From a virus: a DNA stretch of 39,987 nucleotides. The notes below the pieces were generated by a model that made no database searches, was not told the DNA's origin, and saw nothing but the letters and a program-made list of their open reading frames with translations. Shown here piece by piece: positions 1 through 39,987 of this stretch. The stretch covers positions 1 through 39,987 of IMG/VR virus record IMGVR_UViG_3300041955_001176. One strand, 5' to 3'. Within the stretch, counting starts at the first letter, position 1, and each line of letters opens with the position of its first letter. The translations under genes were made by a program, and so were the position numbers.

Positions 1-249
1 GACACAGATCCTGCGACCAGGGTGGGCGTCGATGTTCCCGCCATGATCGATCGCGGCGATGTCGACGGCTGCAGCTTCAGCTTCAACGTGCGCAAGCAGA
101 CCTGGAGCGACGTCTTCGACGACGACGGCCACTACGTCAAGTCGATTCGCATTATCGACGATTTGGATTTGTTCGACGTCGGGCCGGTGACCTTCCCGGC
201 TTACACAGACACCACGGTCGATGTGCGCTCGCTGTGGCCCCTTGGAATT
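1..249. repeat. Terminal direct repeat, left copy
   Basis: Bases 1-249 recur at 39739-39987. The only difference I found is G at 128 versus A at 39866. This marks the contig as circular or circularly permuted with a unit length of about 39,738 bp. The repeat lies inside the prohead protease gene, so it is more likely an assembly overlap of a circular or permuted genome than a biological T7-type terminal repeat. Confidence 0.95.
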
Positions 250-5096: not shown

Positions 5097-5579
5097 GTGA
5101 CTCAGACAGCGACGCCGCTTATTGGCCTGGGCTTTGCGCTATCCATCGGCACCCAGGGCGGCACTCCAACCTACACCGTGGTGAACGGCATCAAAACCTT
5201 CAAGATGGCCGACGGTTCCTGGGGCACCGAGGATGTCACCGTCCTCAACACCGCGGCCTTTTCGCGCCGCTTCATCAAGACTCTCGAGGATGCCGGCGAG
5301 GCCGAGGTCAGCATGCTCTGGGACTCGGCCGATCCCGGCCAGGTGCTGCTGCTCGCGGCCTACGCGGTCGGTTCCAACTCTGCCAACGGCGCCGATTTTC
5401 CGATCAAGGCCGCCATGCCTATCGACCTGGCCGGAGGCCAGACCACCACGGGCGACACTTTCGCCTTCAATGGCCTGGTCACCAAGTACAAGCGCCCCGA
5501 AGTCCAGGTGGATAAAACCCTCACCTGGGGCGTCACCATCAAGGTCGATGGCGCGGTCACCCTCACCGAAGGCGCGTAA
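5097..5579 (+). CDS. Major tail tube protein
   Basis: A 160-aa protein starting with GTG at 5097, with AAAGGAA just upstream. It follows the tail terminator and precedes the chaperones, the standard tube position. It has the usual tube pattern: an early VVNGIKTFKMADGSWGTEDVTVLN segment, a RFIKTL region, the helix DPGQVLLLAAYA, and beta strands ending KTLTWGVTIKVDG. Subunits stack as hexamers to form the non-contractile tail tube. Family assignment is by order and pattern, not by exact motif. Confidence 0.82.
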   Translation: MTQTATPLIGLGFALSIGTQGGTPTYTVVNGIKTFKMADGSWGTEDVTVLNTAAFSRRFIKTLEDAGEAEVSMLWDSADPGQVLLLAAYAVGSNSANGADFPIKAAMPIDLAGGQTTTGDTFAFNGLVTKYKRPEVQVDKTLTWGVTIKVDGAVTLTEGA

Positions 5580-5581
5580 AC

Positions 5582-5619
5582 TTGCTTCTCCAGGGGCGCC
5601 GGCGTTATACTGGCGCCCC
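5582..5619 (+). promoter_or_regulatory. Cargo-gene promoter with the -10 in a hairpin loop
   Basis: TTGCTT (5582-5587), an 18-bp spacer and TATACT (5606-5611) resemble a sigma-70 promoter. The -10 sits in the 11-nt loop of an inverted repeat, GGGGCGCC (5593-5600) and GGCGCCCC (5612-5619). A GGAGGGG ribosome site follows at 5621-5627. With the terminator at 6431-6453 it makes the gene between them independently expressible, as in classical morons. Confidence 0.6.
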
Positions 5620-5629
5620 CGGAGGGGCT

Positions 5630-6406
5630 ATGGCCGTCTGGATCGTCCTTTTTTGTGCTGCGGCGATTACGCTGTGGTTCGCTTTCAGAGCCGCCTTGGC
5701 GCCCAGCGCGAGGATTGACACACGCGAATCGAGGTCGCCTAGCCACGCCTCAGGGGCAAATCCGTCAGGCGCGGATCCTGAGAATATGTATCGGGCGAAG
5801 TTTAGTGCTAGAGCGGCCTCGGAGGCAGCGAGAGCGCCGGCTGATCCCTTTGTTGACGAGCATCCGGCGCCATTGAGGAATAGGATCGATGCCGTTTGGA
5901 CTGCAGCTGAACAGCCTACGAACTGGGAGCGTCAACGGAATTACGAAGAGGCGCTAGACGCTCAGCGAGAGCCCAGCGTTTGGCATATCCGCGTAGCTGG
6001 CGCTACGCACCCGACTCGGGTAGGCAATGTTGATCGGAAAACGATCTATCGCCAATTAGTTTCCGGCCAGCCACTTCGCATGGTGAGGGAGCCGGATAAC
6101 GTCTACGATTTTAACTGCATTTGCTTTTGGCTCGACCCGGATGTAGGGCCGCCCTTGGATGTCGGTTATCTCCCGCGGACCTGGGCCGCCCATTTTGCGG
6201 CGCTTATGGAGAGGCGCGCAAAATTCTCGGCCTGTGTTCAAAAGATCGAGAGACAGGGGGAGCACGGTCAGTTCCTTTACCTTTTCGTTGAGATTCGCCA
6301 AATTTCGGAGCCAGAGATTAAGCATCGGCCGAAAGCTGAGCAGGTGCTTAGAACTTATCGCAAGCAAGAAACCCCGGCGCCAGAGCGAATCGGACAAAGC
6401 ACCTAA
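5630..6406 (+). CDS. Membrane-anchored HIRAN-domain protein (moron)
   Basis: 258 aa from ATG 5630, chosen because GGAGGGG precedes it by a normal spacing. Residues 2-22 are a hydrophobic segment (AVWIVLFCAAAITLWFAF) that should anchor the protein in the inner membrane. A polar linker follows, then a HIRAN-like domain at about 115-225: HIRVAG, a QLVSGQPLRMVREPDNVYDFNCICFW core, VGYLPRTWAAHFAALM and a closing strand. HIRAN domains in HLTF/Rad5-type helicases bind 3' ends of DNA; bacterial stand-alone HIRAN proteins are poorly known. The codon choice (ATA, GGA, AGG, CTA) is less GC-biased than in the neighbouring tail genes, and it has its own promoter and terminator. It is an inserted cargo gene, perhaps a host-defence or superinfection factor (inference). 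Confidence 0.75.
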   Translation: MAVWIVLFCAAAITLWFAFRAALAPSARIDTRESRSPSHASGANPSGADPENMYRAKFSARAASEAARAPADPFVDEHPAPLRNRIDAVWTAAEQPTNWERQRNYEEALDAQREPSVWHIRVAGATHPTRVGNVDRKTIYRQLVSGQPLRMVREPDNVYDFNCICFWLDPDVGPPLDVGYLPRTWAAHFAALMERRAKFSACVQKIERQGEHGQFLYLFVEIRQISEPEIKHRPKAEQVLRTYRKQETPAPERIGQST

Positions 6407-6430
6407 CCTGACGTCAGCCGTCGCAAATCA

Positions 6431-6453
6431 AAGCCGCCTTCGGGCGGCTTTTC
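6431..6453 (+). terminator. Terminator after the HIRAN gene
   Basis: AAGCCGCC, loop TTCG, GGCGGCTT, then TTC: a perfect 8-bp stem with a stable UUCG loop and a T-tract. It is a textbook rho-independent terminator, placed 25 bp after the cargo gene stop and just before the next tail gene. Confidence 0.88.
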
Positions 6454-6466
6454 TATCGGGGAAGAC

Positions 6467-6823
6467 ATGGCCAAGACTGAGAAATTCGAGTTTACTATCG
6501 ACAAAGTCAATGAAGAGGCGACGCTGCGCGTAGGGGAGGAAACTTTCCAGCTTGAGTTTGATTTCAATGCGCTTTCTTCTTTCTATTCGGTGTTCAAGGT
6601 CAACCCTGCCGTCGAGCCCCTCGGCTCAGATCCGGCCCGGTGGGCCGGATTGCTCTGGGTAGGGCTCTTGCATCATCAGCCGGACTTCAAATCAGACACG
6701 GTGAGGTCATGGTTCAATTCGCGCTCTTGTTTGAAGCTTTGCGAGGGGACCCTGCGTGCCTTTCGGTTAGCATCTCCGGAGCCGGAGGCTGAGGAGAAAT
6801 CGCTGGACCCTCCGAGCGCCTGA
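6467..6823 (+). CDS. Tail assembly chaperone, G-like
   Basis: This 118-aa acidic protein follows the tube (after the cargo insertion) and precedes the tape measure, the position of lambda gpG. ATG 6467 has the weak site GGGGAAG at 6458-6464. The sequence is a beta-rich N-terminus (FEFTIDKVNEEATLRVGEETFQLEFDFNALSSFY) followed by helices, like many short phage chaperones. It coats the tape measure before tube polymerisation. The next frame is -1 relative to this one and stays open from 6793, so a G-GT type frameshift product is possible, but no canonical slippery heptamer is visible. Confidence 0.65.
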   Translation: MAKTEKFEFTIDKVNEEATLRVGEETFQLEFDFNALSSFYSVFKVNPAVEPLGSDPARWAGLLWVGLLHHQPDFKSDTVRSWFNSRSCLKLCEGTLRAFRLASPEPEAEEKSLDPPSA

Positions 6824-9864: not shown

Positions 9865-9929
9865 AGCATTGCCACGTTATCGCATTATTAGGGAATTACA
9901 TACTTAAACTCCCTTAAAGGAGGGAAACG

Positions 9930-10268
9930 ATGAAACTTGATCGGAATATCGCAGAAAACCACGGGCGCGGCAAATATGCGTTACTTTTGCTGCGGAGCGT
10001 TGAACAATATCGGGGCGGAACATTTAATTCAATTCGACCTGACATCCTTGCGGCGCTGAAACTGCTTTCAGATGAGCATCTCTTGGATTTTGGTGACACT
10101 CCTGAAACAGAGTTCTTTGTGATGCGTCTCAAGGATCAATTTGCTTCGCATGGACTCACGGCCTACGCTAACGCTGCCGAGTTGGTCGATTACGAATACG
10201 GTCAAGAAGTCGGAGCCTTAGCGAAACGCAGCGGGAAGAACAACCCCTTTTGCAAACAACCAGATTAA
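9930..10268 (+). CDS. Small cargo (moron-like) protein of unknown function
   Basis: A 112-aa protein from ATG 9930 with AAAGGAGGG just upstream. It is flanked on both sides by AT-rich DNA that differs sharply from the GC-rich tail genes, which points to recent acquisition. It starts with MKLDRN and GRGKYALLLLRS and ends with a P-F-CKQPD motif; the same end-pattern occurs in a widespread, uncharacterised small-protein family as far as I recall. A stem-loop at 10269-10290 follows directly. No membrane segment or enzyme motif is visible. Confidence 0.7.
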   Translation: MKLDRNIAENHGRGKYALLLLRSVEQYRGGTFNSIRPDILAALKLLSDEHLLDFGDTPETEFFVMRLKDQFASHGLTAYANAAELVDYEYGQEVGALAKRSGKNNPFCKQPD

Positions 10269-24181: not shown

Positions 24182-24190
24182 ATGAAATGA
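24182..24190 (+). other. Two-codon minigene overlapping the integrase start
   Basis: ATG AAA TGA at 24182-24190 has AGGAG at 24169-24173 at good spacing, and its stop overlaps the ATG at 24187. It could tune integrase translation by reinitiation. The known parallel is the lambda bar minigenes (two-codon frames near att). If integrase starts at 24271 instead, this is chance. Confidence 0.35.
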
Positions 24191-25338
24191 GCGTAAAATT
24201 TGCGCCTCGTCTAATCTTTCAGCATACCCTTGGGCACGTCGATTGCTTCGCTTGCAGTGAGGCTAATCGTATGTCCGAACGATCGTTGACCGCCGACTTG
24301 CTCTTTCCCGATGCTTTCAACCTCTGGCTCTCCTGGCGGCTGCTGGCGCCGTCCGGAGACGTCGGGCGACTTACCGACGCGCGCTACTTGGCGCCCAAAA
24401 GCATCAAGGATTATCGCGCCTGCGCGGTCGCCTTGGATAAATTCTTCGGCCGACTCGCGTTGGGCGAGATCCACGCTGGCCACCTGCGGGAATATCAGCG
24501 CACGCGCGCCTATTGCGATCCTGCCGGGGGCGCCTGGGCGCATCCAGCGGGCGCCAACCGCATTCGCAAGGAGATCGCTCTGCTGATCCGTATTCTCCGC
24601 GATGCGCGGCTTTGGGGCGATCGGGAGGAGCGCTGCTTTACGCGGTTGCGGGCTGTCGAAGAAGATGTGCCGCGCGCCCTGCAACCGGAGGAGCAAGCGC
24701 GTTTTCTGGCCGTGGCTGCGAGCCGTGTCGAGTGGCAGTTCGTTTATTGGTATGCCGTCCTGGCTTTGCAGACCACGGCGTCGACGAACGAGCTGCGCGC
24801 CCTGCGCATTGGCGACGTGCTCCTGGCGCAGGGCATATTGCAGATCCGGCGCGAGGGAGCGAAGAATAAATACCGCATCCGCACTATTCCGCTCGAAACT
24901 CCGGAGGTGATCTGGGCGCTGGCGCGGCTGGTGGAACGGGCGCGATCGCTGGGAGCGGCCGCTCCGCACCATTACCTCTTCCCGATCCAGGAGGCAAAAG
25001 GACATTACAATCCCAATCGGGCGATGTCCGACTCGGGATTGAAAAAGCGTTTCAACGCCGTGCGCGCGGCCGCCAACCTGGATTGGCTTCGGCCTTACGA
25101 CCTGCGCCACACAGCGATCACCCGCATGGCCGAGGCTGGCGTGCCCATCCAGGTGGTTATGAGCTTTGCCGGCCACATGACGCAGCGCATGCAGCAACAC
25201 TACACGGCGATCAGCCTGACGGCCAAGCGCAAATGGGCGCGCTCGACCTGGTCGGAAGATCCCGCACAGGGCTTTCCCGTTGTGGGAGAGAACGAAAGTG
25301 GTAGGCGTTTTCCACAGGAAAAGTTGCATCGTGCCTGA
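24187..25338 (+). CDS. int: Tyrosine recombinase (integrase)
   Basis: 383 aa from ATG 24187 (a second start, ATG 24271, would give 355 aa). It integrates and excises the phage at attP. The N-terminal SAM-like DNA-binding domain covers about 45-150 (SIKDYRACAVALDKFF...). The catalytic domain has Lys in GAKNKYR, DLRHT with Arg307, the GHM His and the nucleophile Tyr339 in QQHY. The usual first Arg position in the TGLR-x-x-EL block reads Ser199 (TTAS-T-NEL), and the Box II His position is Tyr (YDLR). Attachment-site DNA follows the gene. Confidence 0.9.
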   Translation: MSVKFAPRLIFQHTLGHVDCFACSEANRMSERSLTADLLFPDAFNLWLSWRLLAPSGDVGRLTDARYLAPKSIKDYRACAVALDKFFGRLALGEIHAGHLREYQRTRAYCDPAGGAWAHPAGANRIRKEIALLIRILRDARLWGDREERCFTRLRAVEEDVPRALQPEEQARFLAVAASRVEWQFVYWYAVLALQTTASTNELRALRIGDVLLAQGILQIRREGAKNKYRIRTIPLETPEVIWALARLVERARSLGAAAPHHYLFPIQEAKGHYNPNRAMSDSGLKKRFNAVRAAANLDWLRPYDLRHTAITRMAEAGVPIQVVMSFAGHMTQRMQQHYTAISLTAKRKWARSTWSEDPAQGFPVVGENESGRRFPQEKLHRA

Positions 25339-33548: not shown

Positions 33549-33979
33549 GGCCGCCGAAGACGATTTTACTGGTGGGTGACGATATGCGCGTGGGCATATT
33601 GCGCTTTGTGATTGCAACCCACTCCCGGTACCGGGTTTCGCTTGCTGTTGGCGCTCAGCAGGCGCTTGACCTGCTGGCAGTTGGTCGCTACGACCTGCTG
33701 CTTTGCCAGGCGCCACTGGATTTACTGGAACCGCTCCTAGTTCGCGCCAAGATGATCGATGACGTCATGCCTACGATGGTTTTGGGCGCCGAGGGACACC
33801 CCAGACCGGACTGTTACTGTGGCGCTTTTCTAGCCGGCGCGAGCACAGCTGAGGTCCTTGAGCGCATGCGAGTGATGATAGCGCGCAAGCGCGGACCTAA
33901 AGGATGCTTTGTGGCCGGATGCAGGCCGCCGAGGCCCGAATGCTTCACGCTTAGCGAAGAAGTGGCGACGGTGCGCTGA
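33545..33979 (+). CDS. Degenerate CheY-like receiver-domain protein
   Basis: 144 aa, ATGA overlap with the initiator stop. The first 120 residues follow a receiver: KTILLVGDDMRVGILRFVI, AVGAQQALDLLAVGRYDLLLC, MPTMVLGAEG, a GAFLAGASTAEVLERMRVMI end. The acidic pair D12-D13 is kept, but the phospho-acceptor position is Gln55, the Thr position is Gly and the Lys position is Ala. So phosphorylation is not expected. It may act as a decoy or a protein-interaction domain, unproven. A Cys/Pro-rich tail follows. Confidence 0.65.
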   Translation: MRPPKTILLVGDDMRVGILRFVIATHSRYRVSLAVGAQQALDLLAVGRYDLLLCQAPLDLLEPLLVRAKMIDDVMPTMVLGAEGHPRPDCYCGAFLAGASTAEVLERMRVMIARKRGPKGCFVAGCRPPRPECFTLSEEVATVR

Positions 33980-34431
33980 TGGTGATGAAGGTGAGTCCTG
34001 AGGAACGGCAACTCGAAGAGCGGATCGGCGCGCGGGTGGCGATTTGGCGCGATCGACGCGGCCTAACAGCCTGCGCGCTCGCCGATTTGGCCGGGTTGCA
34101 CCGCAACACCATTTGGCGGCTGGAGGCTGGAATTTGCGGTTTCTCGATTGTCATCCTGTGGAAAATCGCGGCTGTATTAGAAGTTGACCTCTTCGCTTTC
34201 ATAGGGGACCCGCCACGCAACCCCTTTGCTTTGATAGAGGGTGCACCTAATCTGGTTCATTCTTGGGAAAAAGCTGTTGTGGAGTACAAAAAACCTGTTA
34301 ATGTTGTTTGCGGAACGGAAAACAGCCCGAACCCGTCATCGGCAAGCTCGATGGTCTCTACGACAAGCGGTAGCTTTAAGAGTAAGCCGACGACCGTTCA
34401 AACCGCGACCAACACATCATCCCGCGCCTGA
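33979..34431 (+). CDS. XRE-family HTH regulator
   Basis: 150 aa, ATG 33979 overlapping the previous stop; ATG 33985 is an alternative. RIGARVAIWRDRRGLTACALADLAGLHRNTIWRLEAGICGFSIVILWKIAAVLEVDLFAFIG is a standard Cro/C1-type HTH (about residues 15-76). The C-terminal third is Ser/Thr/Pro-rich low-complexity. It could be the lysogeny repressor or a control gene, but it is not divergently placed from an operator, so its role is open. Confidence 0.72.
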   Translation: MVMKVSPEERQLEERIGARVAIWRDRRGLTACALADLAGLHRNTIWRLEAGICGFSIVILWKIAAVLEVDLFAFIGDPPRNPFALIEGAPNLVHSWEKAVVEYKKPVNVVCGTENSPNPSSASSMVSTTSGSFKSKPTTVQTATNTSSRA

Positions 34432-39476: not shown

Positions 39477-39987
39477 ACGCAGATTCGTCAAGGGCGGTAA
39501 TGTCCGCGCCAAGAAAGACGGAAAGCCCGGCATCGCCGGCGTCGCCGCCGTCTATACCCAGGAGTACGACACGGGCTGGTTCGTCGAGAGCATCGCGCCC
39601 GGCGCGTTCAGCCGCGCCCTCAAGGAAAAGCAGGACGTGCGCTGCCTGTTCAATCACGATGTCAGCCAGGTTCTGGGCCGCACCAAGTCGGGCACGCTGC
39701 GTCTTGAGGATTCGACTGAAGGTCTCAAGTTCGAGTGCGACACAGATCCTGCGACCAGGGTGGGCGTCGATGTTCCCGCCATGATCGATCGCGGCGATGT
39801 CGACGGCTGCAGCTTCAGCTTCAACGTGCGCAAGCAGACCTGGAGCGACGTCTTCGACGACGACGACCACTACGTCAAGTCGATTCGCATTATCGACGAT
39901 TTGGATTTGTTCGACGTCGGGCCGGTGACCTTCCCGGCTTACACAGACACCACGGTCGATGTGCGCTCGCTGTGGCCCCTTGGAATT
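39466..39987 (+). CDS. Prohead protease, N-terminal part (gene wraps the window ends)
   Basis: ATG 39466 lies inside the portal end. The piece encodes residues 1-174, of which the last 83 repeat what is encoded by 1-249. IAGVAAVYTQEYDTGWFVESIAPGAF is the usual first strand and the catalytic His is H64 in LFNHD. Sequence variant: Asp at the site where the left copy has Gly (base 39866 versus 128). The gene continues at 1-762. Confidence 0.92.
   Translation, partial: MQIERRFVKGGNVRAKKDGKPGIAGVAAVYTQEYDTGWFVESIAPGAFSRALKEKQDVRCLFNHDVSQVLGRTKSGTLRLEDSTEGLKFECDTDPATRVGVDVPAMIDRGDVDGCSFSFNVRKQTWSDVFDDDDHYVKSIRIIDDLDLFDVGPVTFPAYTDTTVDVRSLWPLGI
39739..39987. repeat. Terminal direct repeat, right copy
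   Basis: Repeats 1-249 with one substitution (A at 39866 for G at 128). Together the copies allow circularisation of the contig. Confidence 0.95.

What the first reader, a model, noticed from the sequence alone, without database searches (positions are those of the whole stretch)
5582..6453. Membrane-anchored HIRAN protein as a self-contained moron in the tail operon
The gene has its own near-consensus promoter, a strong UUCG-loop terminator, and a less GC-biased codon choice, and it interrupts the tail tube-chaperone junction. HIRAN domains are known mainly fused to helicases; a HIRAN domain tethered to the inner membrane by an N-terminal helix could watch incoming or broken DNA at the envelope, e.g. 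for superinfection exclusion. I know of no described system like this.
Basis: partly seen in the sequence, partly recalled or inferred. Interest (0 to 1): 0.78.

Follow-up and report, generated by a model that had tools for sequence, protein, structure and literature searches.

The report
Membrane-anchored HIRAN protein in prophage slot
A temperate soil phage carries, in a slot between two tail genes that related phages fill with other membrane or secreted proteins (including relatives of a known infection blocker), its own switchable gene for a DNA-end-binding-type domain tied to the inner membrane, which would let a dormant phage guard its host's envelope against other phages, although that function is not tested.

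Summary
The HIRAN call is right: Pfam E=2.2e-8; a domain model at pLDDT 83.5 matches the HLTF HIRAN structure. Residues 1-23 form one membrane helix, and the charges around it put the HIRAN domain in the cytoplasm. The gene is a moron in a complete temperate phage, in a clade linked to Acidobacteriota. Related phages carry different cargo at the same tail-tube/chaperone junction. Two carry other N-terminally anchored HIRAN proteins; two carry T4-Imm-family superinfection proteins. In outgroups the junction is empty. Single-gene cassettes in the slot share TATACT-N9-GGAGGGG-NN-ATG or are leaderless, and 15 of 17 encode a membrane or secreted protein, against 0 of 10 junction genes without the motif.
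Corrections: the -35 is not real, and the terminator probably belongs to the slot. New: the -10 lies in the loop of a strong hairpin (-37 kcal/mol) that buries the ribosome site only in read-through mRNA, as T4 does for I-TevI. Six of eight first-position cassettes have such a hairpin; none of nine later ones does.
Best reading: a lysogen-expressed envelope protein, probably for superinfection exclusion, acting on entering DNA. Location and expression logic are well supported; function is inferred. New variant of a known kind.

The parts
5097..5579 (+). major tail tube protein gene, upstream border of the slot
   Evidence: PHROG_158 E 4e-13 and weak PF16461; A5 profile across the clade
5584..5628 (+). 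hairpin: arms 5584-5591 and 5593-5602 with 5610-5619 and 5621-5628, loop 5603-5609; holds the -10 and buries the Shine-Dalgarno
   Evidence: -37.0 kcal/mol, z -4.0; Shine-Dalgarno unpaired probability 0.002, 5 of 5 bases paired with sequence upstream of the inferred start site
5606..5611 (+). -10 element TATACT; inferred transcription start about 5618
   Evidence: conserved TATACT at fixed distance from ATG in cassettes with different cargo; no conserved -35; start site inferred, not mapped
5621..5625 (+). Shine-Dalgarno GGAGG
   Evidence: sequence; same motif in sibling cassettes
5630..6406 (+). membrane-anchored HIRAN protein, 258 aa
   Evidence: Pfam, profile and fold matches
5630..5698 (+). 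N-terminal transmembrane helix, residues 1-23; N-out/C-in by charge
   Evidence: KD 2.33, C-flank net +1; helix 2-23 in the model
6041..6250 (+). HIRAN domain, residues 138-207 (Pfam match)
   Evidence: PF08797 2.2e-8; domain model pLDDT 83.5, Foldseek to HLTF HIRAN E 3.7e-4, probability 1.00
6430..6451 (+). terminator-like hairpin with UUCG loop and short U-run, shared by the slot
6467..6823 (+). tail assembly chaperone-position gene, downstream border of the slot
   Evidence: weak PHROG_2115 tail protein E 0.03; A6 profile and synteny

Best explanation
This is a lysogen-expressed moron in an envelope-cargo slot of a temperate phage clade. In the prophage, host RNA polymerase starts at the -10 inside the hairpin loop; the short mRNA lacks the 5' arm, so its ribosome site is free. 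In lytic growth, mRNA reading through from the tail tube gene folds the full hairpin and hides the site, so the gene is off or low. The product sits in the inner membrane with its HIRAN domain facing the cytoplasm. It most likely protects the lysogen by superinfection exclusion, binding or blocking DNA of an incoming phage as it crosses the membrane. Shown by comparison: slot, cargo exchange, -10, hairpin, envelope bias, HIRAN fold. Inferred: start site, the regulatory switch, topology. Least certain: the target and the exclusion activity.
For: HIRAN. Anchor and C-in charge bias in three diverged HIRAN proteins at one junction; another Acidobacteriota HIRAN has a C-terminal anchor. Same slot, other cargo; empty in outgroups. 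Superinfection immunity family PF14373 in the slot of two relatives. TATACT geometry P=3e-13; a blind collection scan returned 17 loci, 14 of them in this clade, all 14 with an N-terminal hydrophobic segment and none of the other 3. Cassettes with the motif: 15 of 17 with a hydrophobic helix, against 0 of 10 without, Fisher 8e-6. Hairpin: first-position Stouffer Z -8.3, later-position +0.6. Precedent for the switch: T4 I-TevI, e, soc (PMC2988022, PMC3014915). Temperate: integrase 24187-25338, repressor-like 33979-34431. HK97 gp15, an N-anchored exclusion moron, sits one gene further on. A PADLOC defence-candidate family, PDC-M03B, matches the HIRAN part.
Against: No functional data, and no close homolog outside a near-identical contig. 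Only part of the slot's cargo has a known exclusion link; other envelope roles are open. The DNA pocket aromatics known from HLTF vary (Tyr93 position: Y in the window, F in L011, V in L015). The Shine-Dalgarno is fully buried in only 4 of 8 first cassettes, and later cassettes are mostly not hidden this way. No nuclease or second gene that would destroy incoming DNA.
Confidence: 0.5

Rival explanations
1. A lysogenic-conversion gene that serves the host rather than phage exclusion: an inner-membrane DNA-handling protein, for example in DNA uptake, repair at the membrane or envelope stress.
For: Other slot cargo includes secreted proteins without a known exclusion link; HIRAN proteins with Tat-like or C-terminal membrane segments occur in Acidobacteriota genomes.
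Against: Imm-family genes in the same slot and the HK97 gp15 parallel point to exclusion.
Confidence: 0.22
2. A lytic-cycle or virion function: a membrane tether for replicating or packaged phage DNA, or a tail-assembly accessory, made from late mRNA.
For: Lies in the tail operon in the same orientation; a HIRAN protein of another phage is listed in its replication and repair module (PMC6469090).
Against: Read-through mRNA would hide the ribosome site; cargo varies between relatives, so it is dispensable; absent from outgroups.
Confidence: 0.12
3. The protein aids the phage's own entering DNA, for example by capping ends against host exonucleases at the membrane.
For: The HLTF HIRAN domain binds DNA (PMC4666394) and HIRAN is described as a DNA 3'-end binder (PMC9503650); the DNA of tailed phages is usually linear on entry (PMC12904381).
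Against: It would have to be made before or during entry, while the promoter looks host-read and independent; no virion signal seen.
Confidence: 0.08
4. On the expression part only: the 5' hairpin is not a translation switch but a transcription insulator or a 3' stabiliser of the tail tube mRNA; the buried ribosome site is a by-product.
For: The hairpin is tied to first position, directly after the tail tube gene; HK97 has an annotated terminator after its major tail gene; in L006 the hairpin ends before most of the Shine-Dalgarno.
Against: In window, L007, L012 and L081 all five Shine-Dalgarno bases pair upstream of the inferred start, and the -10 lies in or at the loop; leaderless sibling genes (L011, L015) would equally favour the local transcript.
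Confidence: 0.35

Closest known systems
HIRAN domain family PF08797 (HLTF, Rad5, standalone bacterial and phage HIRAN)
   Same: Pfam match over cut-off, fold match, N-x-x-D-x-N-x-I core motif
   Different: No helicase; a membrane helix and about 110 residues of poorly conserved linker precede the domain; pocket aromatics vary
HK97 gp15 superinfection exclusion moron
   Same: Single-gene moron in the tail region with an N-terminal helix and a cytoplasmic tail by charge, next to a terminator; blocks DNA injection according to PMC10883804
   Different: 62 aa, no HIRAN domain, sits one gene later (chaperone/tape measure)
T4 Imm family PF14373
   Same: Members occupy the same slot in L015 and L006 with the same -10
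   Different: The window protein is not a member
SNIPE and Kiwa (membrane-tethered DNA-binding defences)
   Same: DNA-binding module held at the inner membrane where phage DNA enters (PMC13190303, PMC12904381)
   Different: No DUF4041, no GIY-YIG nuclease, no KwaA/KwaB pair in the window gene
T4 hairpin-controlled genes (I-TevI, segB, e, soc)
   Same: Ribosome site hidden in read-through mRNA, free in mRNA from a promoter inside the structure (PMC2988022)
   Different: Here a -10 presumably read by host polymerase in a temperate phage moron, expected on in the prophage and off late; not tested

Membership tests
HIRAN PF08797 | profile match over curated cut-off | tested here: met
   34.2 bits against 24.7
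HIRAN PF08797 | HIRAN fold | tested here: met
   model pLDDT 83.5; Foldseek to HLTF E 3.7e-4, probability 1.00
HIRAN PF08797 | aromatic pocket for the DNA end (HLTF Tyr72, Tyr93) | tested here: inconclusive
HIRAN PF08797 | binds ssDNA 3' ends | not testable with these tools
   needs protein
phage moron | extra gene between genes adjacent in relatives | tested here: met
   3 nt in Caulobacter phage TMCBR2, 88 nt in L042, 888 nt here
phage moron | own promoter and terminator | tested here: inconclusive
   -10 supported, -35 not; terminator shared by the slot
phage moron | different base composition | tested here: met
   GC3 0.60 against 0.78-0.83 upstream
phage moron | expressed in the lysogen | not testable with these tools
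   no RNA data
superinfection exclusion protein (HK97 gp15 type) | blocks entry of other phages' DNA | not testable with these tools
   needs lysogen or expression strain
T4 Imm PF14373 | profile match | tested here: not met
   no PF14373 hit in the window protein
SNIPE | DUF4041 and GIY-YIG nuclease | tested here: not met
   only HIRAN found
PADLOC candidate PDC-M03B | full-length match | tested here: inconclusive
   4.8e-6 but only the HIRAN part aligns
T4-type hairpin-hidden ribosome site | Shine-Dalgarno paired only in upstream-started mRNA (predicted fold) | tested here: met
   unpaired 0.002 in long mRNA against 0.22 in the short one

The most novel reading that the evidence does not exclude
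A membrane-tethered DNA-end sensor for superinfection exclusion: the HIRAN domain captures the leading end of DNA entering through the inner membrane, in a nuclease-free, single-protein system that is switched on only in the prophage by a promoter placed inside an RNA hairpin.
Probability: 0.25. Interest if true: 0.85.

Novelty: new variant of a known kind. Interest (0 to 1): 0.6.

Why it matters
If true, a DNA-end-binding domain known from fork repair has been put on the inner membrane as a phage gatekeeper, a third way beside SNIPE and Kiwa to use the place of DNA entry to tell self from non-self. The slot is also a ready hunting ground: one motif (TATACT-N9-GGAGGGG-NN-ATG) next to the tail tube gene picks out envelope cargo in this clade, and exclusion genes of Acidobacteriota phages are, to my knowledge, almost unstudied. 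The promoter-in-hairpin design would explain how a gene inside a strongly transcribed late operon can be kept for the prophage stage.

Tried and rejected
Close relatives of the whole protein in phages, plasmids and genome contigs: none. Distant DNA matches to the region in phages and plasmids: none. Structure of the full protein with 3 sequences: low confidence (pLDDT 55), so the domain was modelled alone. A conserved -35 was looked for and rejected. The hairpin as a DNA operator: rejected as unlikely because the arms differ in sequence between phages while pairing is kept. Prophages of this clade in Acidobacteriota genomes: only one close match in 396. The best A3-profile Acidobacteriota hit, in G218, has its anchor at the C-terminus and lies after rpoC, not in a prophage tail operon. 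The HK97 gp15 paper is not held.

Full report
What is there. The window is an IMG/VR virus record of 39,987 bases whose ends overlap by 249 nt with one mismatch, so it is probably a complete, circularly closed genome of about 39.7 kb. It has an integrase (24187-25338) and a repressor-like protein (33979-34431), so it is temperate. Relatives by tail terminator protein include a contig of an Acidobacteria MAG; the host phylum is inferred from that link. The gene of interest runs 5630-6406 (258 aa) between the tail tube gene and the chaperone-position gene. Another contig carries the same region at 99.97%.

HIRAN and anchor. Pfam HIRAN scores 34.2 bits (E 2.2e-8). A profile of the three anchored relatives finds HLTF HIRAN in the PDB at 5e-6. 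A model of the domain (pLDDT 83.5) matches HLTF HIRAN (E 3.7e-4, probability 1.00) and the standalone bacterial protein lp_0118 (TM-score up to 0.75). Residues 1-19 have a mean hydropathy of 2.33, the second best segment 0.73. In all three proteins the flank after the helix is more positive than the one before it, which predicts a cytoplasmic HIRAN domain. This is a rule-based prediction; no dedicated topology program was run. HLTF holds DNA between Tyr72 and Tyr93 (PMC4666394). The window keeps a tyrosine at the second position; relatives have F or V.

The slot. A scan with the tail terminator protein gave 14 loci and further scans gave more. In every junction of this clade read in full, at least one extra gene lies between tail tube and chaperone. 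Cargo differs: N-anchored HIRAN in L011 (E 2.9e-8) and L015 (1.3e-8), 26% and 20% identical to the window; PF14373 superinfection immunity proteins in L015 and L006; small C-anchored, secreted and lipoprotein-like proteins in others. The outgroup Caulobacter phage TMCBR2 has the two genes 3 nt apart, and the distant junction in Acidobacteriota genome G383 (L042) is empty, with 88 nt and a terminator-like hairpin. So the slot is filled in this clade by exchange of cargo.

Promoter. TATACT occurs 17 times on the forward and once on the reverse strand of 15 loci (165 kb). Of the 17, 13 lie 7-8 or 17-22 nt before an ATG of an open frame, against a background of 6% (P=3e-13). The usual form is TATACT-N9-GGAGGGG-NN-ATG. 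An exact scan of 2.9 million viral contigs for this form returned 17 loci; 14 are in this clade and all 14 encode a protein with an N-terminal hydrophobic segment, while the other 3 do not. In 396 Acidobacteriota genomes it occurs twice. The HIRAN genes of L011 and L015 have TATACT-N7-ATG, which predicts leaderless mRNA. No -35 is conserved. At junctions, genes with a -10 of this kind encode a strongly hydrophobic helix in 15 of 17 cases, genes without it in 0 of 10 (Fisher 8e-6). Some sequences are related, so these P values overstate independence.

Hairpin. RNA of 5580-5640 folds at -37 kcal/mol (z -4.0). The -10 lies in and next to the loop, and the Shine-Dalgarno lies in the 3' arm. A transcript starting about 7 nt after the -10 lacks the 5' arm. 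With upstream sequence shuffled as control, 6 of 8 first-position cassettes have a stronger fold than expected (p<=0.04; Stouffer Z -8.3), and none of 9 later-position cassettes does (Z +0.6). The first/later split was seen after a first test; L081 (first), L087 and L077 (later) were added afterwards and agree. The Shine-Dalgarno is fully paired upstream of the start, and unpaired with probability below 0.01, in window, L007, L012 and L081. T4 uses the same device for I-TevI, segB, e and soc (PMC2988022, PMC3014915). Because the hairpin goes with the first position, a role as insulator or mRNA 3' stabiliser after the tail tube message cannot be excluded.

Terminator. The UUCG-type hairpin upstream of the chaperone recurs with different cargo, and HK97 has an annotated terminator right after its major tail gene. 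It is best seen as part of the slot.

Function. HK97 gp15, an exclusion moron (PMC10883804), has an N-terminal helix with a cytoplasmic tail by charge and lies one gene further on. SNIPE and Kiwa show that DNA-binding modules tied to the membrane can stop entering phage DNA. PADLOC's candidate defence family PDC-M03B matches the HIRAN part of all three proteins. Together with Imm-family neighbours this makes superinfection exclusion the leading reading, but it rests on association. Literature search found standalone phage HIRAN proteins and no membrane-anchored one; most subscription papers are not in the library searched.

Noticed in passing
window 9905-10268: ORF 9930-10268 (112 aa, GC3 0.48) after the tape measure gene has TAAACT-N8-GGAGG before its ATG; a second moron candidate in the window.
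   Followed up: partly
window 1-249 and 39739-39987: Terminal overlap of 249 nt with one mismatch; the record is probably a complete circular genome whose end repeat is not exact.
   Followed up: yes
L015 1838-2035 and L006 7115-7348: T4-Imm-family (PF14373) genes in the tail tube/chaperone slot with the same TATACT cassette layout.
   Followed up: yes
L069 / L074 (G218, after rpoC): Acidobacteriota HIRAN protein with a C-terminal membrane helix as a lone gene after rpoC; membrane anchoring of HIRAN seems to have arisen at either end.
   Followed up: partly
L054, L055, L056, L067: HIRAN proteins with Tat-like N-terminal signals in Acidobacteriota genomes, possibly exported.
   Followed up: no
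L053 2974-3744: Viral contig with a HIRAN domain followed by C-terminal hydrophobic segments.
   Followed up: no
L011 3608-3623, L015 2097-2112, L011 3345-3360: -10 element exactly 7 nt before ATG, predicting leaderless mRNA for moron genes.
   Followed up: partly
L004 7332-7862, L007 7216-7398, L012 7657-8181: HK97-gp10-like frames (Pfam match for L004, look-alikes in the others) sit inside the slot in some relatives, without the -10 motif.
   Followed up: no
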